Part shown: positions 3,776-24,384 of the stretch, piece after piece
Position numbering within the stretch: position 1 is the stretch's first letter
Layout: every line of letters starts with the position of its first letter
Notes under the pieces: model-generated
Database searches by the model: none
What the model saw: only the letters and a program-made list of their open reading frames with translations
Told to the model about the DNA's origin: nothing
Position numbers and translations under genes: made by a program
Assembly (NCBI RefSeq): GCF_001874145.1
Contig: NZ_MPCX01000004.1
Location: 62,001 to 126,000 of the forward strand
DNA length: 64,000 nucleotides
Direction: 5' to 3'
Source of the DNA: Lacinutrix sp. MedPE-SW
Lineage (GTDB): Bacteria > Bacteroidota > Bacteroidia > Flavobacteriales > Flavobacteriaceae

Positions 3776-4438
3776 TTATTCTAAAATTAATTTAGGTAAA
3801 TTCTTGTTAAACCACTTATACTTATCAATAATCATTATATGTGTTCCGTTTTTTATTGTAATACATTCACCTAAATATTGATGCGGGAAAACAATATCTT
3901 TATCTCCATGAATATGTATTGCTTGTTCCATTACTTTGTCTTGATTCCAGTTAATTATTTGCTCTATAGACCAATCTAGATAATACTTATCGTTAACCGA
4001 TAGGTATTTTTTATAAAGTTCTATTCTTCTTTTAATTAAATTTCCAAAAGCAAATTTTGCTAATAAATCTAAATTTCCAGCTAATTGTGTTGGTAGTAAT
4101 TTATAGGCTTTTGTTGCTTTTAAAACTTTAAACCGTTTTGGTAATTCGTGTTTAGTTTTCACACTAGATACTACAAAAAGTTTTCTCACTTTTATATGTT
4201 TACTCATCTCTTGAACTAAAATACCTCCAAATGACACACCTAATAACACTACATCTTTATGTTTAATTTTTTGGGTCATACGTAAAGCATAATCACTAAG
4301 CGTTTCGTTTTTAAAAGGAATTTCCCAGGATAAAGCATGTAACTTAAATATATTCTCGTCTAATGAAAGATTATCAAAAATTGATGGATTTGCTGCCATT
4401 CCTGGCATTAAATAAACATGTATTACTTCTTGAATCAT
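3776..4438 (-). CDS. Alpha/beta hydrolase
   Basis: A 220-residue cytosolic protein with a compact alpha/beta-hydrolase fold. The nucleophile elbow is GVSFGG (Ser at about residue 69). The acid is probably the Asp in HGDKDIVFP, and the catalytic His is in NGTHIMI near the C-terminus. There is no signal peptide. The substrate is unknown. It is transcribed divergently from the small acetyltransferase-like gene at 4561. Confidence 0.85.
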   Translation of the reverse strand: MIQEVIHVYLMPGMAANPSIFDNLSLDENIFKLHALSWEIPFKNETLSDYALRMTQKIKHKDVVLLGVSFGGILVQEMSKHIKVRKLFVVSSVKTKHELPKRFKVLKATKAYKLLPTQLAGNLDLLAKFAFGNLIKRRIELYKKYLSVNDKYYLDWSIEQIINWNQDKVMEQAIHIHGDKDIVFPHQYLGECITIKNGTHIMIIDKYKWFNKNLPKLILE

Positions 4439-4482
4439 AAGGTTTTAACAATAAATAGAAACTTAATAACGTTTAATTGTCG

Positions 4483-4490
4483 TACTTTTG
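4483..4490 (+). promoter_or_regulatory. Predicted -7 element for the gene at 4561
   Basis: TACTTTTG matches the Bacteroidota -7 consensus TAnnTTTG. No good TTG box is visible at the expected distance. It lies 70 bases before the ATG. Confidence 0.45.
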
Positions 4491-4560
4491 TAATGTGTAA
4501 AGCTATAAAATAGTTGGCACTATTTTTGAATCCCTTAGAATAAATTAAAACCCATAAATT

Positions 4561-4857
4561 ATGATTGATGCTGCCGAGCTAGTTGACAATGAATTTCAAC
4601 GTCAATTTGAGATTAAGACCGAAGATCATTTTGCTAAAATTGAATATTCTCTTCAAGAACGAAAAATTTTTTTAACAAAGCTTATAATTCCTGAAGCAAT
4701 AAGTGATGAAAATTTTACGAGTGATTTTTTAAAAGTTGTATTTCAACATATTGAGGAGCGTAATTTAAGTATTGTTCCTACCAGTCCAGAAATTGCAAAG
4801 TTTATAAGACGCAATAGACAGTATAAAAAATTACTTCCTGTTGGTTTAAGAATTTAA
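4561..4857 (+). CDS. Small GNAT-like N-acetyltransferase (YjdJ type)
   Basis: A 98-residue protein resembling the short Gcn5-related acetyltransferase domain family of the YjdJ kind. The pattern is a beta hairpin (about 22-45) followed by a helix and the segment LSIVPTSPEIAKFIRRN (about 75-90), matching the usual vPtCpyv...p.y..lv ending. The family probably binds acetyl-CoA, but substrates are unknown. It is a stand-alone gene followed by a strong terminator. Confidence 0.75.
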   Translation: MIDAAELVDNEFQRQFEIKTEDHFAKIEYSLQERKIFLTKLIIPEAISDENFTSDFLKVVFQHIEERNLSIVPTSPEIAKFIRRNRQYKKLLPVGLRI

Positions 4858-15840: not shown

Positions 15841-16383
15841 GTGGTAGACGATAAAAAACTTATATTAAAACTACAATCGCCAGATTATAAAGATGCAGCC
15901 TTCAAAGAATTAGTTGCGCTCTATAAAGAGCGTTTGTATTGGCATATAAGAAATATTGTAAAATCTCATGACGATGCAGATGATGTTTTACAAAATACAT
16001 TTATAAAAGTCTACAAAGGTATTAGTGGTTTTAAAGGCGATAGTAAATTATATTCATGGTTATATAGAATTGCAACTAACGAAGCCATTACCCAAATAAA
16101 TAAAAATGCTAAACGCTTACAAATTACAAACGAAGAAGCACAGAATATAGCAATAAACAATCTAGAATCTGATGTTTATTTTGAAGGTGATGCCATACAA
16201 ATAAAGCTACAAAAAGCCATAGCAACATTACCAGAGAAACAACAGTTAGTTTTTAATATGAAATATTTTCAAGATATTAAATACAAAGACATGGCAGAGA
16301 TTTTAGAAACTAGCGAAGGTGCATTAAAGGCATCATACCATATAGCAGCAAAAAAAATTGAATCCTATTTAAAAGAGAATTAA
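15841..16383 (+). CDS. ECF-type RNA polymerase sigma factor
   Basis: A 180-residue group 4 sigma factor. Region 2 spans about residues 25-90 (DDADDVLQNTFIKVYKGISGFKGDSKLYSWLYRIATN) and region 4 about 120-178 (LPEKQQLVFNMKYFQDIKYKDMAEILETSEGALKASYH). The start is GTG. No in-frame ATG gives a full region 2. Two genes follow closely, a membrane protein and a secreted Spy-like protein, so this looks like a sigma / anti-sigma / sensor set. A direct repeat lies upstream at 15701-15733. Confidence 0.93.
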   Translation: MVDDKKLILKLQSPDYKDAAFKELVALYKERLYWHIRNIVKSHDDADDVLQNTFIKVYKGISGFKGDSKLYSWLYRIATNEAITQINKNAKRLQITNEEAQNIAINNLESDVYFEGDAIQIKLQKAIATLPEKQQLVFNMKYFQDIKYKDMAEILETSEGALKASYHIAAKKIESYLKEN

Positions 16384-16416
16384 ACCATTTAAGGTTTTTA
16401 CAGTCAAAGTATTAAG

Positions 16417-16887
16417 ATGGAAAACAAAAACTTACATAATATTAAAGAAACAGGATTTAAAGTACCTCAAGACTATTTTGAAGCACTTGAAGATACTATT
16501 TTAAATGAGGTAAAATTAAAAAGTATTGTTAGCGAATCTGGTTTAAAAATACCAAAAGGCTACTTAGATAATTTTAATGTTTCTGTTAAAGAAGAGACAA
16601 AAGTCATTTCTATATTTAACAAAAAAAATATAATATTTGTATCTAGTATTGCTGCTGCAATTGTATTATTTTTTAGTTTAAATATTTTTAATACCTCAAC
16701 AACAACTTTAGATGATATAGATACAGCATCTGTAGATGATTATATATTAAATGAAACAGAAATTAGTGAACTAACAACCTTATTTCAAGATTCAGATTTA
16801 AGTGAAGCACAATTTATAGATTACACATTAAGTGATGAAGCTTTAGATAGCTTTATAGAAGATGTAGATGATTTATATTCAGAATAA
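16417..16887 (+). CDS. Single-pass membrane protein, probable anti-sigma factor
   Basis: A 156-residue protein with one transmembrane segment at about 70-88. The cytoplasmic side holds two copies of a short motif: GFKVPQDYFEALED (about 13) and GLKIPKGYLDNFN (about 46). The outer part is strongly acidic. This layout is common in Bacteroidota directly after ECF sigma genes and fits an anti-sigma role, but it lacks a recognisable ZAS domain. Inference rests on position, 33 bases after the sigma gene. Confidence 0.65.
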   Translation: MENKNLHNIKETGFKVPQDYFEALEDTILNEVKLKSIVSESGLKIPKGYLDNFNVSVKEETKVISIFNKKNIIFVSSIAAAIVLFFSLNIFNTSTTTLDDIDTASVDDYILNETEISELTTLFQDSDLSEAQFIDYTLSDEALDSFIEDVDDLYSE

Positions 16888-16905
16888 ACATTTAAAAAAA
16901 TTACA

Positions 16906-17352
16906 ATGAAAAATATAAAACACATACTTGTCCCTATTTTTATTTTTCTTTTATCGGCAAATATAAATGCACAAAAACACGATAAGGAAAAGATAAATGC
17001 TCTAAAAGTAGCTCATATTACAGAAGAGTTAGATTTAACAGCTAAAGAAGCACAAGCCTTTTGGCCAATTTACAACCATAAAGAAGAAGCTGAAGATAAT
17101 ATTAGAGAAAACTCTGGCTTAAAACGTATAAATGATTTTGATGCCATCTCTGAAACTGAAGCAAAAGACTATTTAGATACGCTTATTAAAATGGAATTAT
17201 CTAAACAGAAAATACAAAAAGAATACTATACAAAACTTAAAAATGTACTTTCTGCTAAAAAGATTTTAAAACTCATGAATGCAGAGCGTTCTTTTAGACG
17301 CAAAATGATACAGGAGTTTAAACAAAGACACCGTGGGAAATCTAAAAAATAA
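16906..17352 (+). CDS. Secreted Spy/CpxP-like helical protein
   Basis: A 148-residue protein with a signal peptide (about 1-22, ending NINAQ). The rest is helical and charged, with LDLTAKEAQAFWPIYNHKEEAE, a pattern seen in Spy/CpxP-like and LTXXQ-type periplasmic proteins, and a basic tail. Third gene of the ECF module, 18 bases after the probable anti-sigma gene. It may sense or buffer an envelope stress. The ligand is unknown. Confidence 0.7.
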   Translation: MKNIKHILVPIFIFLLSANINAQKHDKEKINALKVAHITEELDLTAKEAQAFWPIYNHKEEAEDNIRENSGLKRINDFDAISETEAKDYLDTLIKMELSKQKIQKEYYTKLKNVLSAKKILKLMNAERSFRRKMIQEFKQRHRGKSKK

Positions 17353-17383: not shown

Positions 17384-18484
17384 TTATCTAAATAGTAATT
17401 TAGCTATCCTTTTATTTCCAGCCACATAGGCAATACTATCATTAACAAATCTAATTGTATAAAAACCTTCATCGCTTAAATGTGTCCAGCTTTCGCCCGC
17501 ATCGCTAGAATAGTCTATACCTTTAAAACCAACAGCTACTAATGCCTTTGCATTGCTGTTTGGTACATATTGCACACAACTTCTATAGCCAGGGTTTTCA
17601 TTTTCAGCTACTAATTCCCAAGTTTTCCCACCATCATTTGTTCTAATTTTATTAGCAGTACTATCTTCTGGTTTTGTATAATCACCACCAATTGCAAAAC
17701 CGTTATTCTCATCATAAAAATCTAAAGAATACATACCAGCAGTTTCTATACCTTGAGTTATTGGTGTATTAAAAACTTCCCAAGTTTTCCCTTTATCTGG
17801 AGAGAATAATATTCTACTTGCTTTTCCACCAGTAGCAATCCAAGTTTTATCTCCTACAATAGCAATATTAGTATCGCTTGCTGCAAACGCTGCTTCGCCT
17901 TCTATAACTTCTGGCAATATATTGCAAGGCACTTTAGTCCAGTTTTTTCCTCTATCTCTTGTAATTACAATACTTATGCAATTATCTGTTGGATCTCCCA
18001 TTGCAATACCTTCTTCATCATTCCAAAATTCTATTGCATCGTAAAATGCTTTTTCATGATTTTCTTGGTAGACTACTTTATTTCTATGTGCATCATTATC
18101 TAAATTAAATATTAAACCAGGCGAACCAATACTTACACCAAACGCTCTATTACTTGTAAGCGCTAACGCTCTAAAATTTGGAACTATTGTATCATGCTTT
18201 ATATTAATTGGAAATTGTTTTTTAACACCTGGCAACACATTAGCTTCTTCATTAAAAAGCATACCAAACTCTCCCATTGAAGTTAAATAGGCTAAACCTA
18301 CATTTTTAAAGACCTCTATAGCGCGAACGTTTAAATCATTTTTTTCTACTAGAGTTTCAATTTCTATTTTAGAAAAAGTTTTTACCGAAGCCTTTGTTTT
18401 TAATGTTTGTTCTTGAGTACTTCCACAATTATATAAAGTTATAATTACAAGTAAGCAGAGTAAAGTAATAGTTAGTTTTCTCAT
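17384..18484 (-). CDS. YCF48/sortilin-like beta-propeller lipoprotein
   Basis: A 366-residue protein with a lipoprotein signal (LYNCGS, Cys at about 20). The mature part has beta-propeller repeats with Asp-box-like motifs, such as TRDRGKNWTKV, SPDKGKTWEVF, TNDGGKTWELV and SSDAGESWTHL, as in plant photosystem II factor YCF48/HCF136 and bacterial 'oxidoreductase'-labelled relatives. A binding or assembly role on the cell surface or periplasm is plausible. No catalytic site can be assigned. It is separated from the SCO gene by a terminator, so it is not part of the upstream ECF regulon. Confidence 0.8.
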   Translation of the reverse strand: MRKLTITLLCLLVIITLYNCGSTQEQTLKTKASVKTFSKIEIETLVEKNDLNVRAIEVFKNVGLAYLTSMGEFGMLFNEEANVLPGVKKQFPINIKHDTIVPNFRALALTSNRAFGVSIGSPGLIFNLDNDAHRNKVVYQENHEKAFYDAIEFWNDEEGIAMGDPTDNCISIVITRDRGKNWTKVPCNILPEVIEGEAAFAASDTNIAIVGDKTWIATGGKASRILFSPDKGKTWEVFNTPITQGIETAGMYSLDFYDENNGFAIGGDYTKPEDSTANKIRTNDGGKTWELVAENENPGYRSCVQYVPNSNAKALVAVGFKGIDYSSDAGESWTHLSDEGFYTIRFVNDSIAYVAGNKRIAKLLFR

Positions 18485-18506: not shown

Positions 18507-18541
18507 AAAAAAGCTTTACGACAAAATCGCAAAGCTTTTTT
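18507..18541 (-). terminator. Intrinsic terminator after the SCO gene
   Basis: Stem AAAAAAGCTTT / AAAGCTTTTTT with an inner CGA/TCG pairing. It lies 20 bases downstream of the SCO stop on the minus strand and closes the YHYH-MORN-SCO unit. Confidence 0.8.
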
Positions 18542-18561: not shown

Positions 18562-19257
18562 TTAACCTTGTTCCTTCAAGGTTTTAACATCAACAATCAA
18601 TTGTGCCATTGAGGCTCTATTTAAACCATTATAGATACCTCTAATGTGTTTATTTTTGTCTATAAGTAGGAAGTTTTCGGTATGTAAAAAATCATTAATA
18701 GTTTTGGGTTCTCCTAAATCGTTTTCTATGAAATATTGTGCTCTACCAAGGTTATAAATCACCTGTTTATCTCCTGTTACTAAATGCCATTTGTTATCTA
18801 TTACACCATTTTTTTTGGCATAATTTTTTAAAACTGGAACAGAGTCTTTTGTTGGTGTTACGGTGTGCGATAAAAACAACACCTCATCATCGTTTAAAAA
18901 CTCTTCTTGTAATTTAAACATGTTTCCCGTCATTTGCGGACAAATACCAGGACAACTAGCAAAAAAGAAATCGGTGATATATATTTTATTTTCAAACGTT
19001 TTTTGCGACACTTCATTACCTAGTTGGTTTATTAACGAAAAGTCTGGTATTTTATGAAACGTTTTTTCTTCTTCTGTTCCTGGTGTTAACCATTTTGGTG
19101 TAAAAGACTCTTCGTTATAATATGGTAAATACTCTACTCTACTGGTTTCTTCTGCTTTACTAATTTCTTTTGTTACAGTTTTTTTACAACTAGCTAGCAC
19201 TAAAGCAAAACACAGTAAACCCAATAACGTTTTATTTTGTTTTAATAACTTTTTCAT
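18562..19257 (-). CDS. SCO family copper chaperone-like lipoprotein
   Basis: A 231-residue thioredoxin-fold protein of the SCO1/SenC family. The lipobox is VLASC (Cys at about 23). The copper/redox motif CPGICP is in FFASCPGICPQMTGN (about 105), and the partner His lies in FLHTENFLLID (about 192). SCO proteins deliver copper to cytochrome oxidase CuA or act as thiol oxidoreductases at the membrane surface. Its start overlaps the end of the MORN-type gene by 26 bases, which implies translational coupling. Last gene of the unit driven by the ECF-type element at 20643-20673. Confidence 0.92.
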   Translation of the reverse strand: MKKLLKQNKTLLGLLCFALVLASCKKTVTKEISKAEETSRVEYLPYYNEESFTPKWLTPGTEEEKTFHKIPDFSLINQLGNEVSQKTFENKIYITDFFFASCPGICPQMTGNMFKLQEEFLNDDEVLFLSHTVTPTKDSVPVLKNYAKKNGVIDNKWHLVTGDKQVIYNLGRAQYFIENDLGEPKTINDFLHTENFLLIDKNKHIRGIYNGLNRASMAQLIVDVKTLKEQG

Positions 19258-19852
19258 TTTCTAATTTATAACATGAGTTTGCTCGCATTAAACCAAAGAT
19301 TCTACCGTTTTTAGCTTCGTAATTAACATAAAGTTTTCCTGTTGGCAACCAAGCTTTTTGAATACCATTTTCTTTTCCATCCTTTAACAGTCTTAACTTT
19401 GATAGTTTTCCGTTAGAATACCATTGTTTTTCTTCTCCCTGCTTTTTTCCATTTACATAATTAACCTCTAAAGCTAAGTTTCCATTTTCCCAAAAACTTC
19501 TATAAGAACCAACCAATTTGTTTTGGTTATAATATGATTCTATACGAAGTACTCCATGCTCTGACCATGTTTTGGCTACACCTTGACGTTTTCCGTTATA
19601 AAAACCAAGTTTTTCTTTTATAGTATTATTTTCATGATACTTTAAAGCATAACCGTTGTAAGGTTCCTCTTTATAATACCAAACACCTTGTAGCTGATTT
19701 AAAATCAATTCAGACTTTGGTACTTCAACATTTTTAATATTTATAGCATTTTCGGTTTTAGTTACTTTATTTTCTTCGGAAGTATTTGTTTCTGAAGATT
19801 GCTTACAACTCAAAAAGAAAATAACGATTATAACAGTTAAAAATGCTTTCAT
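19232..19852 (-). CDS. MORN/YwqK-like repeat lipoprotein
   Basis: A 206-residue exported protein with a lipobox (FFLSCKQS, Cys at about 16). It has at least four repeats of the form Y..NG...W...G.L..E..Y.NGK..G (about 55-185), the MORN-variant fold of the YwqK family. Databases often label these 'toxin-antitoxin YwqK antitoxin', but no toxin gene is present and the protein is secreted, so that label is not supported here. It lies between a YHYH gene (4 bases upstream) and the SCO gene (overlapping), so it probably works in the same surface process. Confidence 0.75.
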   Translation of the reverse strand: MKAFLTVIIVIFFLSCKQSSETNTSEENKVTKTENAINIKNVEVPKSELILNQLQGVWYYKEEPYNGYALKYHENNTIKEKLGFYNGKRQGVAKTWSEHGVLRIESYYNQNKLVGSYRSFWENGNLALEVNYVNGKKQGEEKQWYSNGKLSKLRLLKDGKENGIQKAWLPTGKLYVNYEAKNGRIFGLMRANSCYKLENEKVIKTK

Positions 19853-19856
19853 AATT

Positions 19857-20615
19857 TTAGTACCCTTGATATGGTCCTGCGAATGCTAAGTAAGATCCTG
19901 TATTAGAATATACTTCGTTTATTATATGATAGTGGTATTCTTCTTCTCCATCTGTATATTGTGTTGTAGAAGTATGACCTCCTGAAGCATCTAAATCGTC
20001 TGGGTATGTACCAGTTGTATTACATTTTCTTCCGTAAAGGAAAACACCATCTAATAATACACCTACTAAGGCATCATCATCATTAGAAAAAGCTTTGGGC
20101 TCTAAATGATAGTGATAGACACCTGGCCCAATATGTGCACCTGTATAATCTAAACTTGCTGCTGCTTGGTCTAAAGGTCCGCCACCTTCTTGATCATTAA
20201 AAATTGAAGCACCACTAACTGCTATACCAATAGTATTAAATGTTGTAGATACTGTATTGCCGGTTAAATTTGGTGTAGCATCTACTGTGATAGTTACAGC
20301 ATTATTATTACTTGACATTATACTAGGTGTTACTTGTACATCTGGCTCTTCTATGTAAAGCGGATGTCCTTCTCCCCAATAAACGGTTTGGTGATCTGGT
20401 AAACCTGTAGTTTCTATTACAACATTTGTTCCCGTATTGTCTATATAAATTGTTGTAGCATCTGTATTAAAAGCCGAGTATGCTGCATGAAGCTCTGTTA
20501 CAACTTCGTCTTCTGTAACAGTTGTTGTGCTTGCAGCATCATCATTTGAAGTACAAGCGATACTTAATGTAAACACCGCTACCATTAATAATATTAGTTT
20601 AAATAGGTTTTTCAT
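19857..20615 (-). CDS. YHYH domain lipoprotein
   Basis: A 252-residue protein with a lipobox (IACTS, Cys at about 21) and a YHYH domain. The defining tyrosine/histidine motifs are VYHYHLEP (about 168) and EYHYHIIN (about 229), joined by the conserved GVLLDGVFLYGR and DLDASGGHTSTT stretch. The YHYH family is uncharacterised. The alternating His residues suggest metal binding, which is inference. First gene of the unit with the MORN and SCO genes, preceded by an ECF-type promoter element 28 bases upstream. Confidence 0.88.
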   Translation of the reverse strand: MKNLFKLILLMVAVFTLSIACTSNDDAASTTTVTEDEVVTELHAAYSAFNTDATTIYIDNTGTNVVIETTGLPDHQTVYWGEGHPLYIEEPDVQVTPSIMSSNNNAVTITVDATPNLTGNTVSTTFNTIGIAVSGASIFNDQEGGGPLDQAAASLDYTGAHIGPGVYHYHLEPKAFSNDDDALVGVLLDGVFLYGRKCNTTGTYPDDLDASGGHTSTTQYTDGEEEYHYHIINEVYSNTGSYLAFAGPYQGY

Positions 20616-20642
20616 TTTTTATATTTTTAATGTGTTTATCTC

Positions 20643-20673
20643 TTTAGATGCTTATTAAAAAATAAACTTGCGC
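20643..20673 (-). promoter_or_regulatory. ECF-type promoter element A (YHYH-MORN-SCO unit)
   Basis: The minus strand reads GCGCAAGT, 15 bases, CATCTAAA, ending 28 bases before the ATG at 20615. It matches sites B-E in both halves and in exact spacing. No TAnnTTTG housekeeping element is nearby. Confidence 0.75.
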
Positions 20674-20683
20674 TTTTTTTAAA

Positions 20684-21814
20684 TTAATTATGTTTTGATG
20701 GTTTTTGCTTGTTTTTTTCTCCTCCTTTTTCTAATTCTTCTTTAGAGAGAAAACCATTGTTATTGGCATCGATTTTAGAAAAACCTTCTTTTAAAGGTCC
20801 TTTAACTTCGGTTTTAGATAATTTTCCATCATTATTAGCATCCATTTCTTTTATTATTTGAGCTGCATTAGGTCTTCCTCCTGGTCTATTTTGTGGTCTA
20901 CCTTCTCCACTACCTTGCATTCCCAATGCTCTTTTTTCACTCTCATTAACTTCTCCCATAAGGCAACGGCTTATGTATGGAAACTCTTTTGTTACTAAAT
21001 ACATATAGTTTCCGTTTATGGTAATCCCGTTACATTCATCTAAATCTCCATAACCATCAATAAACTCAAAATCTGAACCATAGGTACCATCGTGGTGTCC
21101 TCCAACCGAAATGTCTATAGATTGGTGCGGATTCTCATAACTACAATCTTCGCCTTCACGATTTCCATCTAATAGCTTATAGCTTGGTTTATATTTTCCG
21201 CTTTTAGAATAATACATTGGGAATCCGTCGTGCGCAAAACCTACATGAATTAAATCTTCTCCAGAATCGAAGTTTTGTATAACAGATGTTGGAGTGCCGT
21301 GATAATGGTAAGCTCCTGTTGGTTGTACGTGAGCGTGATTAAAATCTAAACCTAAATTAATAACATCCTGCAAAGCTTCTACTCGATAATTTTCTCCAGT
21401 TTCACATTGTACTACCTCTGCTGTTCCTGGCTCAAATTTAATACCGTTGAGCGCTACTCCTGGTTCTCTAATCCATTGTGCTTTTTCTCCTTTTTTAGGA
21501 TGTAATGGAAATGTATATGTTCTATTTTGAGCTTTTATGGTATTTGGGTTACCAGGATTTGGAAATGTTCCTGTTTCATGATTTGGCAACGCATTAGTTT
21601 CCATTTTACGCGAGTTTGAATCTACAGTTACCACTGTTTTTGTACCGTATTCTTCATTTATTAAAGAATAGTTCCCAAAATAATTGTTTGTTGTATTAGC
21701 AGCTTCGTGGTCATGATTATGTGCCACAGAGCCATCATGACTGTGAGACTTATTGTTACTTTTACAGCCAACAAAAACAGTAACAAGTAAAGTTATAATT
21801 AATCTATTTTTCAT
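20684..21814 (-). CDS. YHYH protein with C-terminal EF-hands
   Basis: A 376-residue lipoprotein (VFVGCKSN, Cys at about 17). A His-rich segment follows the lipobox (SHSHDGSVAHNHDHEA), then a YHYH domain (TGAYHYHGTPTSVI at about 170, VGFAHDGFPMYYS, and the late DLDECNG...GNYMYLVT stretch). Two canonical EF-hand loops are at the C-terminus, DANNDGKLSKTE and DANNNGFLSKEE. The combination suggests a surface protein binding a transition metal plus calcium (inference). The EF-hand block is nearly identical to that of the 94-residue protein at 22482. Its start is 3 bases from the upstream EF-hand gene, so both are read from element B. Confidence 0.88.
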   Translation of the reverse strand: MKNRLIITLLVTVFVGCKSNNKSHSHDGSVAHNHDHEAANTTNNYFGNYSLINEEYGTKTVVTVDSNSRKMETNALPNHETGTFPNPGNPNTIKAQNRTYTFPLHPKKGEKAQWIREPGVALNGIKFEPGTAEVVQCETGENYRVEALQDVINLGLDFNHAHVQPTGAYHYHGTPTSVIQNFDSGEDLIHVGFAHDGFPMYYSKSGKYKPSYKLLDGNREGEDCSYENPHQSIDISVGGHHDGTYGSDFEFIDGYGDLDECNGITINGNYMYLVTKEFPYISRCLMGEVNESEKRALGMQGSGEGRPQNRPGGRPNAAQIIKEMDANNDGKLSKTEVKGPLKEGFSKIDANNNGFLSKEELEKGGEKNKQKPSKHN

Positions 21815-21817
21815 AAT

Positions 21818-22345
21818 CTAGTTTTTTCTTTTAGGTTTTAAATGTTCTTCATTTGCATAAAAAGCTTCCAGTTCTTCCAAATCTAATTCACCATCTGCAT
21901 TTCGATCAATTTTACTAAAATCTTTCATTAATCGACGGTTATCTTTTGCCGCTATTTCGAGTTCATTTAAAGTTTCATCTCCATTATCGTCTATTTGCTT
22001 TATTAACTTTTTAGGAGCTATTTTTTTTACTTTCTTTTTAGAGCTTTTATTATTTAATGAATCGCTTAATTCTTCTAAATCGATAAAACCATCTGCGTTA
22101 CTATCTATCTCATCAAAATCTTGAGATATTTTTCCTCTTTGATCTTGAGAAGCTTCTTCTGCAGAAATTTTATCATCGTTATCGGTATCTAACTTTGATA
22201 ATATTTCTGATGCGTCTGGCTGTGCTCTTTGTTGACCTCTTCCGCCACCTTGACCTCTTCCGCCACCACGACCTTGTGCATAAACACTTGTTGTTAATAG
22301 TAAAATAAATATTGAGAATACTAATTTTAAGTTTTTGTTTTTCAT
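21818..22345 (-). CDS. Secreted protein with four EF-hand loops
   Basis: A 175-residue protein with a signal peptide ending at SVYAQG and a Gly/Arg/Gln-rich linker. Four EF-hand loops follow: DTDNDDKISAEE, DSNADGFIDLEE, DDNGDETLNELE and DRNADGELDLEE. The first and third lack the usual Gly at loop position 6, so they may bind calcium weakly. Role unknown. It is co-transcribed with the YHYH/EF-hand gene and has element B 24 bases before its start. Confidence 0.85.
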   Translation of the reverse strand: MKNKNLKLVFSIFILLLTTSVYAQGRGGGRGQGGGRGQQRAQPDASEILSKLDTDNDDKISAEEASQDQRGKISQDFDEIDSNADGFIDLEELSDSLNNKSSKKKVKKIAPKKLIKQIDDNGDETLNELEIAAKDNRRLMKDFSKIDRNADGELDLEELEAFYANEEHLKPKRKN

Positions 22346-22368
22346 ATTTATATGGTTTTGATTTAATG

Positions 22369-22399
22369 TTTAGATGACTTTTTTTATAAATACTTGCGA
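22369..22399 (-). promoter_or_regulatory. ECF-type promoter element B (EF-hand / YHYH unit)
   Basis: The minus strand reads TCGCAAGT, 15 bases, CATCTAAA, 24 bases before the ATG at 22345. Confidence 0.75.
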
Positions 22400-22413
22400 T
22401 TTTAAAGTTTGAA

Positions 22414-22452
22414 ACTTGAAAAAAGCCTCATGACTTTTACATCACAAAGCTT
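22414..22452 (-). terminator. Possible terminator after the 94-residue EF-hand gene
   Basis: On the minus strand AAAAGC pairs with GCTTTT around an interrupted TGA/TCA stem, followed by Ts. It is weak, with internal mismatches. Confidence 0.35.
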
Positions 22453-22481
22453 TTAACTACTAACCAACCAAAAATTTTATT

Positions 22482-22766
22482 TTATCTTCTTTCTCTTCTT
22501 TTAGGCTTTGGTGCTTTTTTAAACTCTTCTTCACAAATAAAACCATCTTCATTTGTATCAATTTCAGAAAAACCTTCTTTCAATGGACCTTTAACTTCTG
22601 TTTTAGAAAGTAAGCCATCTTCATCCTTATCTAGTTCTTTTAATAACTCACTAAATGTTGGCGGCGTTTTTTGTTCTCTTTTTTCAGATTGACCAAATGA
22701 ACTATTTGAAACTAATACTGCTATTCCAAATGTTAATATTGCTGTTTTGATTGTGTTGCTTTTCAT
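22482..22766 (-). CDS. Small secreted protein with paired EF-hands
   Basis: A 94-residue protein with a signal peptide (about 1-25, ending SSFGQS), one EF-hand pair (DKDEDGLLSKTE and DTNEDGFICEEE) and a basic tail. The 15 residues LSKTEVKGPLKEGFS across the first loop and linker are identical to the C-terminal EF-hand block of the YHYH protein at 20684-21814, which points to recent duplication or recombination. It is a stand-alone unit under element C, 35 bases upstream. Confidence 0.85.
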   Translation of the reverse strand: MKSNTIKTAILTFGIAVLVSNSSFGQSEKREQKTPPTFSELLKELDKDEDGLLSKTEVKGPLKEGFSEIDTNEDGFICEEEFKKAPKPKRRERR

Positions 22767-22800
22767 AATCTATATTTTTAAAATTATTTTGTTATATAAT

Positions 22801-22831
22801 TTTAGATGATGTTATTGAAAATAACTTGTGC
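22801..22831 (-). promoter_or_regulatory. ECF-type promoter element C (94-residue EF-hand gene)
   Basis: The minus strand reads GCACAAGT, 15 bases, CATCTAAA, 35 bases before the ATG at 22766. One base differs from the GCGCAAGT form. Confidence 0.72.
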
Positions 22832-22851
22832 TTTGTTTTGTTAAATAAAAC

Positions 22852-22887
22852 ACAAAAAAAAGACCTTAATTACTTAAGGTCTTTTTA
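22852..22887 (-). terminator. Intrinsic terminator after the Spy-like gene
   Basis: Stem GACCTTAA / TTAAGGTC with a TTAC loop, flanked by A and T runs, 22 bases downstream of the stop at 22909. It separates the anti-sigma/sensor unit from the next EF-hand gene. Confidence 0.85.
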
Positions 22888-22908
22888 TAAAATTATTTGC
22901 TATTTTTT

Positions 22909-23385
22909 TTAAGGTCTATCAGGTCTATCAGGTCTTCTTGGTCCGTTTGGCCTATTACCATCAAAACGTCTTGCTTTTTTTAAAATGTCTGTAAATTGTT
23001 TTTTTTGATTTTCGTTACAAATCTCATAAATACCTCTAAGTTTATTAAAAAGTTCTTTTTCTCTTAACACATCTGTTTTAGAAATTTCATGAATTAAACT
23101 ATCTACCTTAACGCGATCAATTGTAGGTGCTGTAATTTTTTTAAACAATTTATCTTTATTTACTTTTATATCATCTCCAATGCTTTGCATAGCTATATGA
23201 TGATTTTCTTCCAACTTTTTAAATTCCGCTAATTGAGACTCGTTAAAATTTAACTCTTTTACAATAAAATTACTAGACTCCTTTGCTGCATTATGCTGTG
23301 GTCGTCCTAAATAGTTGAATAAAAAAAATCCATTTATTACTATTAAAACAATAAGCAATACATATAAAACTGTATTTTTTTTCAT
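22909..23385 (-). CDS. CnrX/Spy-like periplasmic heavy-metal sensor
   Basis: A 158-residue protein with an N-terminal membrane anchor (about 5-25, VLYVLLIVLIVINGFFLF). A helical periplasmic domain follows, with LNFNESQLAEFKKLEENHH (about 48) and NENQKKQFTDILKK (about 128), the paired LTXXQ-like motifs of the Spy/CpxP/CnrX group, and a Pro/Arg/Asp-rich tail. In Cupriavidus, CnrX senses metal and controls the anti-sigma CnrY and sigma CnrH. The gene order here (sigma, small membrane protein, sensor) is analogous. No metal ligand set can be assigned from sequence alone. It lies 3 bases after the membrane protein gene. Confidence 0.82.
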   Translation of the reverse strand: MKKNTVLYVLLIVLIVINGFFLFNYLGRPQHNAAKESSNFIVKELNFNESQLAEFKKLEENHHIAMQSIGDDIKVNKDKLFKKITAPTIDRVKVDSLIHEISKTDVLREKELFNKLRGIYEICNENQKKQFTDILKKARRFDGNRPNGPRRPDRPDRP

Positions 23386-23388
23386 CTC

Positions 23389-23697
23389 TTAAAAATTGAA
23401 AATTGATGTTTCTTGCTCTGTAGAAATCCCATAATCTGACGCAAAAGTTGAAATTGATGATTCATATTCAGAATTATTTATTTCTTTGATGGCATAAAAA
23501 TTAACCAATACCACACATACTAAAGTAGCCAGTTGTAATTGTGGTGTAAACCAACTCCAAAAAGATGCTGCCACTTTTTCTTCTTTCTCTGTAAATAAAA
23601 TCTGCATGGTTTTATCCTTAAAAAAAGGAGGAGTTTTTACAGTGTCCATTGTGTCAAAGGCTTCTAAAGTCTTTGATACCTTTTCGTCTATGTTCAT
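23389..23697 (-). CDS. Small single-pass membrane protein, probable anti-sigma factor
   Basis: About 102 residues from the preferred start at 23697. A cytoplasmic N-terminal half (about 1-45) is followed by one transmembrane segment (WFTPQLQLATLVCVVLVNFYAI) and a short outer tail. This resembles the tiny anti-sigma factors of CnrY type in topology. An ATG four codons earlier (23709) is possible, but it would leave almost no leader after element D. The start at 23697 gives a 22-base distance, like the other four units. The role is inferred from position between the sigma and sensor genes. Confidence 0.7.
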   Translation of the reverse strand: MNIDEKVSKTLEAFDTMDTVKTPPFFKDKTMQILFTEKEEKVAASFWSWFTPQLQLATLVCVVLVNFYAIKEINNSEYESSISTFASDYGISTEQETSIFNF

Positions 23698-23718
23698 ATT
23701 TATTTTCATTTGTATTAT

Positions 23719-23749
23719 TTTAGATGCAAATTCTCAACAAAACTTGCGC
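23719..23749 (-). promoter_or_regulatory. ECF-type promoter element D (anti-sigma / sensor unit)
   Basis: The minus strand reads GCGCAAGT, 15 bases, CATCTAAA, 22 bases before the ATG at 23697. The element starts at the stop codon of the sigma gene. Confidence 0.75.
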
Positions 23750-24327
23750 TAAATATTATTCTTATAAAAGTTCTCTAATATTTTCTGTAGATTTTTTTTA
23801 GATCTAAACATTAAAGATTCTACAGATGATAAACTTTTATCTATAATTTCACTTATTTCATTATAACTTTTACCATCTATTTTATGCAACGTAAAAACAG
23901 TGCGTTGTGCTTCTGGTAATTGATTTATTGCATAAAAAAGCGTTTTACTTGTTTCTTTATTTTCTAGTAATACACCAGGATGATTCATCTCTGTAAAATA
24001 ATTTGTCATATCCATAGGAATAACATTTCCTGTTATAGACTGTAGAAAAGCAAAACGTTTTTTAGTATTTTTTTTACGTATAAATTCCAAACATTTATTT
24101 GTTGTAATTTTATAAATCCAGGTTGATAGTTTAGACTGTCCTTTAAATTTATGTATAGCATTAAACACTTCAACAAAAACGTCTTGTGCAATATCTTCGG
24201 CATCCTCGGTATTTGGCACAAAAGAAATACATGTAGCATAAACTTTCTGTTGAAAATCATCTAGTAATTTACTATAAGCTTTTTCACTTTTACTTTTAAG
24301 TTCTTCTATAAATTCGGTTTCCGACAA
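23749..24327 (-). CDS. ECF-type RNA polymerase sigma factor
   Basis: A 192-residue group 4 sigma factor. Region 2 is at about residues 20-85 (NTEDAEDIAQDVFVEVFNAIHKFKGQSKLSTWIYKITTNKCLEF) and region 4 at about 130-185 (LPEAQRTVFTLHKIDGKSYNEISEIIDKSLSSVESLMFRSKKNL). It heads a block with its probable anti-sigma and a CnrX-like sensor. The same promoter-like element precedes this gene (27 bases upstream) and the four units that follow. The likeliest reading is that this factor recognises the element and controls its own synthesis. Confidence 0.93.
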   Translation of the reverse strand: MSETEFIEELKSKSEKAYSKLLDDFQQKVYATCISFVPNTEDAEDIAQDVFVEVFNAIHKFKGQSKLSTWIYKITTNKCLEFIRKKNTKKRFAFLQSITGNVIPMDMTNYFTEMNHPGVLLENKETSKTLFYAINQLPEAQRTVFTLHKIDGKSYNEISEIIDKSLSSVESLMFRSKKNLQKILENFYKNNI

Positions 24328-24353
24328 AAATTCTAAATTTTATTCTAATATAA

Positions 24354-24384
24354 TTTAGATGCCAATTATATTAAAAACTTTCGT
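24354..24384 (-). promoter_or_regulatory. ECF-type promoter element E (sigma factor gene)
   Basis: The minus strand reads ACGAAAGT, 15 bases, CATCTAAA, 27 bases before the sigma ATG at 24327. Its -35-like half is the most diverged of the five. Confidence 0.65.

What the first reader, a model, noticed from the sequence alone, without database searches (positions are those of the whole stretch)
18562..24384. Five copies of an ECF promoter-like element define an autoregulated regulon
On the minus strand, GCGCAAGT-N15-CATCTAAA (sites at 20643, 22369, 22801, 23719 and 24354) precedes all five transcription units of this block, 22-35 bases before the start codons. CATCTAAA is identical in all five and the spacing is exactly 15 bases each time. 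I found no copy elsewhere in the window with both halves. The natural reader is the ECF sigma factor at 23749-24327, which would also drive its own gene. This would place the anti-sigma, a CnrX-like sensor, three EF-hand proteins, two YHYH domains, a MORN-type protein and a SCO protein in one regulon.
Basis: partly seen in the sequence, partly recalled or inferred. Interest (0 to 1): 0.87.

Follow-up and report, generated by a model that had tools for sequence, protein, structure and literature searches.

The report
ECF sigma regulon of secreted metal-binding proteins
In a group of marine bacteria, one alternative sigma factor appears to switch on its own small set of exported, probably metal-binding proteins from an unusually well-conserved promoter, giving a testable handle on several protein families whose job is unknown.

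Summary
In detail: five sites at the stated places, exact 15-base gap, no other copy in the window at up to 3 mismatches. In 249 family genomes the exact form CRCAAGT-N15-CATCTAAA occurs in 29 (reversed control 5) and tracks orthologs of this sigma gene: both 27, sigma only 4, site only 2. In the genus, sites occur in exactly the 6 of 12 genomes with the sigma gene. In 80 named loci a weight matrix finds 224 sites, its reversed control 0, mostly before anti-sigma, YHYH, EF-hand, sigma and CotH genes; the housekeeping -7 box is depleted there. The window's second ECF is ruled out as sole reader (220 of 249 genomes). Corrections: the most conserved site precedes the anti-sigma gene (70 of 79), not the sigma gene (29 of 79); the sensor shows the Spy/CnrX fold but not CnrX's metal ligands. 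The job is inferred: envelope metal handling, leaning to copper through SCO and MbnH/MbnP-like partners. No transcript data were available.

The parts
24354..24384 (-). promoter element before the sigma gene (ACGAAAGT-N15-CATCTAAA; weakest -35 half)
   Evidence: matrix score 29.7; close relative G010 reads ACGCAAGT at the same place
23749..24327 (-). ECF sigma factor (TTG start), proposed reader of the element
   Evidence: Pfam Sigma70_r2 6e-17 and Sigma70_r4_2 4e-15; best solved relatives SigW, RpoE/sigma-E, sigma-H
23719..23749 (-). promoter element before the anti-sigma gene, overlapping the sigma stop codon
   Evidence: conserved in 70 of 79 relatives
23389..23709 (-). proposed anti-sigma, 106 aa, short N-terminal part, one hydrophobic segment, short tail (read by eye)
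   Evidence: no Pfam or NCBIfam match; conserved between sigma and sensor (family found in 73 of 80 loci); role inferred from place and layout
22909..23385 (-). periplasmic sensor of the Spy/CpxP/ZraP/CnrX fold
   Evidence: LTXXQ 6e-06; model pLDDT 86.5; Foldseek Spy, ZraP, CpxP, CnrX at probability 1.00 but E 0.007 or worse
22857..22886 (-). terminator-like hairpin after the sensor gene
22801..22831 (-). promoter element before the small EF-hand gene
22482..22766 (-). exported EF-hand protein, 94 aa (export inferred from its N-terminus)
   Evidence: EF-hand_1 1.3e-10
22369..22399 (-). promoter element before EF-hand 175 / YHYH 376
21818..22345 (-). exported EF-hand protein, 175 aa (export inferred)
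   Evidence: EF-hand_7 2.1e-12
20684..21814 (-). YHYH lipoprotein with C-terminal EF-hands, 376 aa
   Evidence: YHYH 6.9e-56, EF-hand_5 1.7e-10
20643..20673 (-). promoter element before YHYH 252 - MORN - SCO
19857..20615 (-). second, divergent YHYH lipoprotein, 252 aa
   Evidence: YHYH 2.5e-07; two invariant YHYH motifs in an alignment of 39
19232..19852 (-). MORN_2-repeat lipoprotein, 206 aa
   Evidence: MORN_2 1.3e-12
18562..19257 (-). SCO1/SenC protein, 231 aa, copper ligands kept
   Evidence: SCO1-SenC 1.3e-22; C102, C106 and H192 in 31 of 31 members
18507..18541 (-). terminator-like hairpin ending the block; the next gene (17384-18484) lies beyond it

Best explanation
The repeated element is the target promoter of the ECF sigma encoded at 23749-24327: -35 core CRCAAGTTTT, a T-rich spacer, -10 core GCATCTAAA, fixed 15-base gap. 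In the resting state (inferred) the 106-aa membrane protein holds the sigma, and the Spy/CnrX-fold periplasmic protein next to it sets whether it lets go. On a signal the sigma is freed and transcribes its own operon, the anti-sigma/sensor pair (a built-in brake, the most conserved target) and the effector units: EF-hand proteins, YHYH proteins, MORN lipoprotein and SCO. Supported here by comparison: promoter, reader and membership. Inferred: the anti-sigma and sensor roles, and the physiological job, which I take to be metal handling or cuproprotein upkeep in the cell envelope, most likely copper (about 0.4), with calcium or general envelope stress as alternatives.
For: (a) Five exact-gap sites, none else in the window. 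(b) Sites in all 8 loci of the close orthologs first fetched, and in loci of 80 named genomes 224 sites at score 20 or more against 0 for the reversed matrix in 1.45 Mb (some of these genomes also supplied matrix seeds). (c) Co-occurrence in 249 genomes, own included: 27 both, 4 sigma only, 2 site only, 216 neither (the weak match G111, E 1.4e-44, counted as lacking sigma); Fisher p about 1e-29. Within the genus 6 of 6 genomes with the sigma gene have sites and 0 of 6 without (in one, G008, the sigma frame is broken by stops). (d) The other ECF in the window occurs in 220 of 249 genomes. (e) 6 of the 10 distal sites (other contigs or far away) precede the same gene families: sulfatase, di-haem peroxidase (MbnH-type), VTC-DUF4956-DUF2490-CotH, CotH, YHYH, MbnP-peroxidase-YHYH. 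(f) Sites lie 26 bases (median) before start codons; 183 of 197 sites of score 25 or more have a same-strand gene start within 300 bases. The housekeeping -7 box TAnnTTTG is depleted upstream of site-bearing genes (8 of 77 against 165 of 618, p 0.001; 0 of 5 in the window). (g) 7 of the 9 most distant sigma loci (49-56% identity) still hold a matrix site of 20 or more. (h) Copper lean: SCO keeps both Cys and His in 31 of 31; an MbnH-type peroxidase lies in 6 of those 9 distant loci, MbnP in 3 and SCO in 1 more.
Against: No transcript, binding or mutant data. The sigma's own site here has A at a position that is C in 225 of 225 relatives' matrix sites, and 50 of 79 relatives show no site before sigma. 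Two genomes have the exact pattern without the sigma and four have the sigma without the exact pattern, although those four loci hold matrix sites (L060 22.7, L073, L074, L078). Of the ten loci, the two most distant (L050, L051; sigma 44% and 38% identical) show no site within 3 mismatches. 4 of the 10 distal sites do not fit: 3 (L081, L084, L088) fall below the matrix threshold and L089 precedes an unrelated gene; two of these four lie in genomes without the sigma. One further distal exact site (G006 contig C26) was not looked at. The genomes share ancestry, so the Fisher p overstates independence. YHYH genes are not tied to this sigma alone: they occur in 74 of 249 genomes, 44 of them without it. 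CnrX metal ligands are not conserved in the sensor. Copper rests on partner genes only, and a 2013 study saw no data tying close MbnP homologues to copper (passages of PMC3621798).
Confidence: 0.88

Rival explanations
1. The element is the binding site of a different activator that helps the housekeeping RNA polymerase, and the sigma is only a passenger of the same cluster.
For: The element was found by conservation, not by a transcription start; cluster genes travel together, which by itself gives co-occurrence.
Against: The housekeeping -7 box is depleted at these genes; the element sits about 26 bases before start codons with a fixed 15-base gap, and 183 of 197 strong sites have a same-strand gene start within 300 bases. 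The only other regulator I recognised among recurrent neighbours is the second ECF; several recurrent neighbour families were not annotated. The element persists at distal genes in genomes that have the sigma (6 of 10 distal sites).
Confidence: 0.07
2. The element is read by another ECF sigma, such as the second one at 15841-16383, or by several ECFs with overlapping specificity.
For: The second ECF gene and its two neighbours lie 1.2 kb beyond the block and often adjoin it in relatives (its sigma family in 29 of the 80 named loci); ECF regulons in flavobacteria may overlap (passages of PMC9723704); two genomes have a site without this sigma.
Against: The second ECF occurs in 220 of 249 genomes, the sites in 29.
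Confidence: 0.05
3. This rival concerns the job only, not the promoter: the regulon serves calcium or cell-surface/envelope stress rather than copper, with EF-hands, CotH, VTC, sulfatase and a Spy-fold chaperone-like sensor as main actors.
For: EF-hand genes in 41 of 71 closer loci and CotH in 22 of 71; the sensor profile's best solved matches are Spy.
Against: SCO in 55 of 71, with all ligands kept in 31 of 31 aligned members; MbnH/MbnP-type genes in the distant relatives.
Confidence: 0.4
4. Chance similarity of AT-rich upstream regions.
For: At 3 mismatches the genome-wide count equals the control.
Against: 0 of 100 shuffles reach five; 79 sites against 5 in 249 genomes; 224 against 0 in relatives' loci.
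Confidence: 0.001

Closest known systems
CnrYXH / NccYXH of Cupriavidus metallidurans (ECF sigma, small membrane anti-sigma, periplasmic metal sensor; layout recalled)
   Same: Same three-gene logic; sensor model matches CnrX chains (TM normalised by target 0.71-0.84) and the Roseivirga homologue in L163 matches NccX/CnrX by sequence (E 2e-4 and 5e-4).
   Different: CnrX ligand columns not conserved; own near-invariant His62 and Cys123. The window's own sensor alone finds no significant solved relative (best Spy, E 0.06). The targets seen are not an efflux pump; the anti-sigma profile matches no solved structure (best E 0.61), so kinship with CnrY is untested.
Spy/CpxP/ZraP periplasmic proteins
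   Same: Fold and LTXXQ motif.
   Different: Here with an N-terminal hydrophobic helix and encoded with an ECF sigma and its proposed anti-sigma.
ECF promoter SM6 of Flavobacterium psychrophilum (PMC9723704, passages read)
   Same: Flavobacterial ECF promoter found by sequence plus start-site mapping.
   Different: SM6 has a CGT box at -10 and drives several type IX secretion genes; here the -10 is CATCTAAA and the targets differ.
MbnP with its di-haem peroxidase partner (MbnH), and SCO genes
   Same: Beside the sigma or under this promoter in relatives. Pfam calls the peroxidase CCP_MauG and the partner MbnP; the label MbnH follows passages of PMC3621798.
   Different: The window block has SCO only; methanobactin genes were not looked for.
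YHYH domain (PF14240)
   Same: Two members in the window; a jumbo-phage survey predicts a metal-dependent hydrolase with three His and an Asp (passage of PMC7824862).
   Different: Here chromosomal lipoproteins in a regulon with SCO; the moderate model (pLDDT 69.9) has no solved-structure match.

Membership tests
ECF sigma factor | sigma regions 2 and 4 only, about 190 aa | tested here: met
ECF sigma factor | gene next to a membrane anti-sigma | tested here: inconclusive
   conserved 106-aa neighbour with one hydrophobic stretch, no family match
ECF target promoter | conserved -35 and -10 with fixed spacing, upstream of own operon and targets | tested here: met
ECF target promoter | transcription starts just downstream and needs the sigma | not testable with these tools
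   no transcript data
CnrX metal sensor | CnrX/Spy-type helical hairpin with N-terminal membrane helix | tested here: met
   (probability 1.00, but no Foldseek match at E 0.001 or better)
CnrX metal sensor | Ni/Co ligands E63, H119, M123 (E63 and M123 also in entry titles; H119 recalled; the two N-terminal His recalled and not tested) | tested here: not met
   aligned columns hold E in 5 of 36, H in 20 of 36 (window K), M in 1 of 36
SCO1/SenC | CxxxC and distal His | tested here: met
   C102, C106, H192 in 31 of 31
YHYH PF14240 | profile match over cut-off | tested here: met
   189.7 and 31.3 bits against cut-off 25
Lanmodulin | curated profile cut-off | tested here: not met
   the three EF-hand proteins score 16.8-29.6 bits against 135

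The most novel reading that the evidence does not exclude
A dedicated ECF pathway of Flavobacteriaceae that governs an undescribed copper-handling programme of the cell surface and periplasm, in which YHYH proteins (with EF-hand, MORN, CotH and SCO partners) are the working parts and a Spy-fold sensor with a His/Cys site, not the CnrX site, reads the metal; feedback runs mainly through the anti-sigma rather than the sigma.
Probability: 0.35. Interest if true: 0.68.

Novelty: new member of a known kind. Interest (0 to 1): 0.5.

Why it matters
It gives a precise, testable promoter and a single likely regulator for several secreted families with no settled job (YHYH, the MORN_2 lipoprotein, short EF-hand proteins, and in relatives CotH and VTC-DUF4956-DUF2490). 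A reporter under this promoter would reveal the cue, and the cue would point to the function. It also shows a regulon that can be traced by its promoter across many genera (27 of 235 sampled) and to distal loci.

Tried and rejected
Loose genome scan: at up to 3 mismatches the own-genome count equals the reversed control (32 and 32), so it was dropped as evidence.

Second ECF of the window as reader: rejected.

Lanmodulin or XopAW membership of the EF-hand proteins: far below cut-offs.

CnrX membership of the sensor by its ligands: not met. Whether His62 and Cys123 form one site is open; I had no coordinates of the model.

YHYH function by fold: the model is moderate and the solved-structure search gave nothing (best E 1.9).

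Literature: 'YHYH' as a whole word occurs in 26 held papers (25 listed). I opened only PMC7824862 (passage); another phage paper in the list (PMC7029224) was not opened; the other listed titles are on unrelated subjects. Searches for YHYH/SCO1/EF-hand/sigma factor and CotH/EF-hand/Flavobacteri/sigma factor/copper listed no title on this regulon. The ECF reclassification paper is not held, so I cannot say whether its groups already include this promoter.

Sixth own-genome site before a DUF4197 gene: kept as a weak candidate only. It scores 25.0 here and 23.7, 18.1 and 19.8 in three relatives (G010, G008, G006), and is absent in the other 9 of the 12 genomes scored, five of which have the sigma (G002, G005, G012, G029, G031) (two further partial matches in G001 were not scored).

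Rows dropped: one of 80 loci (L165) was left out for lack of upstream sequence; the 79 kept include L158, whose contig ends at the sigma gene and so cannot show the anti-sigma site.

Full report
What was checked. The five elements are real, with exact CATCTAAA and exact 15-base gap in all five, and nothing else in the window comes within three mismatches. The upstream half varies: exact in two, one mismatch in two, two in the copy before the sigma gene. Site-to-start distances are 27, 23, 34 and 26 bases; for the anti-sigma gene 9, or 21 if the next in-frame ATG is used. In the own genome (3.04 Mb) four sites lie within one mismatch, all in the window; at two mismatches three are added, of which one is the fifth window site; at up to three the count equals the control.

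Gene content. Pfam confirms sigma regions 2 and 4, an LTXXQ-type protein, EF-hands in three proteins, two YHYH proteins (189.7 and 31.3 bits), MORN_2 and SCO1-SenC; the 106-aa anti-sigma candidate matches nothing. Terminator-like hairpins follow the sensor gene and the SCO gene, so the block probably ends before the BNR-repeat gene at 17384-18484 (7 such hairpins in the region against 3.1 expected).

Conservation. Among 60 genomes (own plus 59 relatives) 11 match the sigma at E 1e-30: the own genome, 8 close orthologs (E 1e-94 or better) and two weak ones (G040, G046). In all 8 close loci the element recurs with the 15-base gap before the anti-sigma, EF-hand and YHYH units, and in 7 of 8 before sigma (L049 lacks it); the two weak loci, L050 and L051, show none. 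115 seed sites from 36 sigma-bearing loci plus the window give the consensus (A)GCRCAAGTTTTT-N10-GCATCTAAA, with an A peak six bases further on (the core CAAGT was required in choosing seeds, so its invariance there is built in). In the matrix scan of the 80 named loci, which penalises but does not forbid other letters, the first C and A of CAAGT and the AT of CATC are the same in 225 of 225 sites.

Who reads it. In 249 family genomes (own included) the exact pattern occurs in 29 (79 sites), the reversed control in 5 (5 sites). The sigma occurs in 31 at E 1.4e-76 or better; a thirty-second, G111, is a partial match at 1.4e-44 and I count it as absent. Both occur in 27, sigma only in 4, site only in 2, neither in 216 (Fisher p about 1e-29; the genomes are related, so this is not a true probability). 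The four 'sigma only' genomes do carry imperfect matrix sites at the locus. In the genus, the 6 genomes with the sigma gene are exactly the 6 with sites, out of 12; in one of them, G008, the sigma frame is broken by stops. The neighbouring ECF occurs in 220 of 249. YHYH occurs in 74 of 249: in 30 of the 31 genomes with the sigma and in 44 of the other 218 (counts). Of the ten distal sites, all fetched, six precede regulon families (sulfatase; di-haem peroxidase; VTC-DUF4956-DUF2490-CotH; CotH; YHYH; MbnP-peroxidase-YHYH), three fall below the matrix threshold, and one precedes an unrelated gene in a genome without the sigma. A distal site in G006 was not fetched.

Named loci. From genome contigs 80 loci were taken (more existed than the limit), largely Winogradskyella, Polaribacter, Lacinutrix, Olleya, Kordia, Maribacter, Muricauda/Flagellimonas and unnamed Flavobacteriaceae, plus nine distant ones at 49-56% identity. 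Over 1.45 Mb the matrix finds 224 sites at score 20 and the reversed matrix 0. Some of these loci are the same genomes that supplied the seeds. The site between sigma and anti-sigma is present in 70 of 79, the site before sigma in 29 of 79 (one locus dropped for lack of upstream sequence; one kept locus ends at the sigma gene). For the 197 sites at score 25 or more the first gene within 300 bases is anti-sigma 58, YHYH 45, EF-hand 34, sigma 26, CotH 8, unnamed 8, VTC 2, sensor 1, BNR 1; 4 run off the contig and 10 are further away. Seven of the nine distant loci hold a site of 20 or more.

Promoter rather than operator. Upstream regions of site-bearing genes hold the flavobacterial housekeeping -7 box TAnnTTTG (motif from passages of PMC9723704) in 8 of 77 cases, against 165 of 618 without a site (p 0.001), and in 0 of 5 in the window. 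With the fixed gap and short leader, this favours a sigma promoter over an activator site.

The switch. The sensor model (pLDDT 86.5) matches Spy, ZraP, CpxP and CnrX at Foldseek probability 1.00, though none at E 0.001 or better (best 0.007). By sequence the family profile matches Spy best and NccX next; the window's sensor alone finds nothing significant, while a Roseivirga member (L163) matches NccX and CnrX best. CnrX ligand columns are not conserved, while His62 (34 of 36) and Cys123 (35 of 36) are. So it probably works like a CnrX/Spy-type sensor but is not a CnrX by its ligands. The site in front of the anti-sigma and sensor genes is the most constant target, which makes a brake on the response the most conserved part of the wiring.

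What it does. Inferred. SCO keeps its two Cys and His in 31 of 31. In the 71 closer loci YHYH occurs in 61, MORN in 57, SCO in 55, EF-hand in 41, CotH in 22; in the nine distant loci an MbnH-type peroxidase occurs in 6, MbnP in 3, and SCO in one further locus (family labels from profiles built here, with representatives checked). Copper is therefore the leading guess, at about 0.4. YHYH proteins stay unexplained: a survey of jumbo phages predicts a metal-dependent hydrolase (passage of PMC7824862), and the model here found no solved relative.

Verdict. A well-conserved ECF regulon, predicted with high confidence; ordinary in kind, and not described in the listings (listings, with passages of three papers read), with the standard ECF classification paper unread.

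Noticed in passing
window 15841-17352, + strand: A second ECF sigma (best guess by look: followed by an anti-sigma and a Spy-like protein, neither scanned) just beyond the block; its sigma occurs in 220 of 249 family genomes.
   Followed up: partly
L043 about 4188-4757 and L090 (Lacinutrix venerupis): The sigma frame is broken by three in-frame stops while four promoter sites are kept; a natural loss or an assembly fault.
   Followed up: no
L006 1501-1531 (own genome contig C3:52711-52741): An intergenic site of score 25.0 (variant CATCTTAA) 33 bases before a DUF4197 gene, shared by 3 of 12 relatives scored.
   Followed up: yes
window 22482-22766 and 20684-20840: In the 94-aa protein and the C-terminus of the 376-aa one the two EF-hand loops lie 12 residues apart (read by eye), a short spacing as recalled for lanmodulin, though the lanmodulin profile is far below cut-off.
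   Followed up: partly
L044 6046-8366 and relatives: A CotH kinase gene and a gene for an unnamed 249-aa protein follow the small EF-hand gene, between two promoter sites, in several relatives.
   Followed up: partly
L089 3154, minus strand: A strong site (31.2) in a genome without the sigma, before a 233-aa protein of unknown family.
   Followed up: no
G006 contig C26:446825-446854: An exact distal site in a genome that has the sigma; the gene next to it was not looked at.
   Followed up: no
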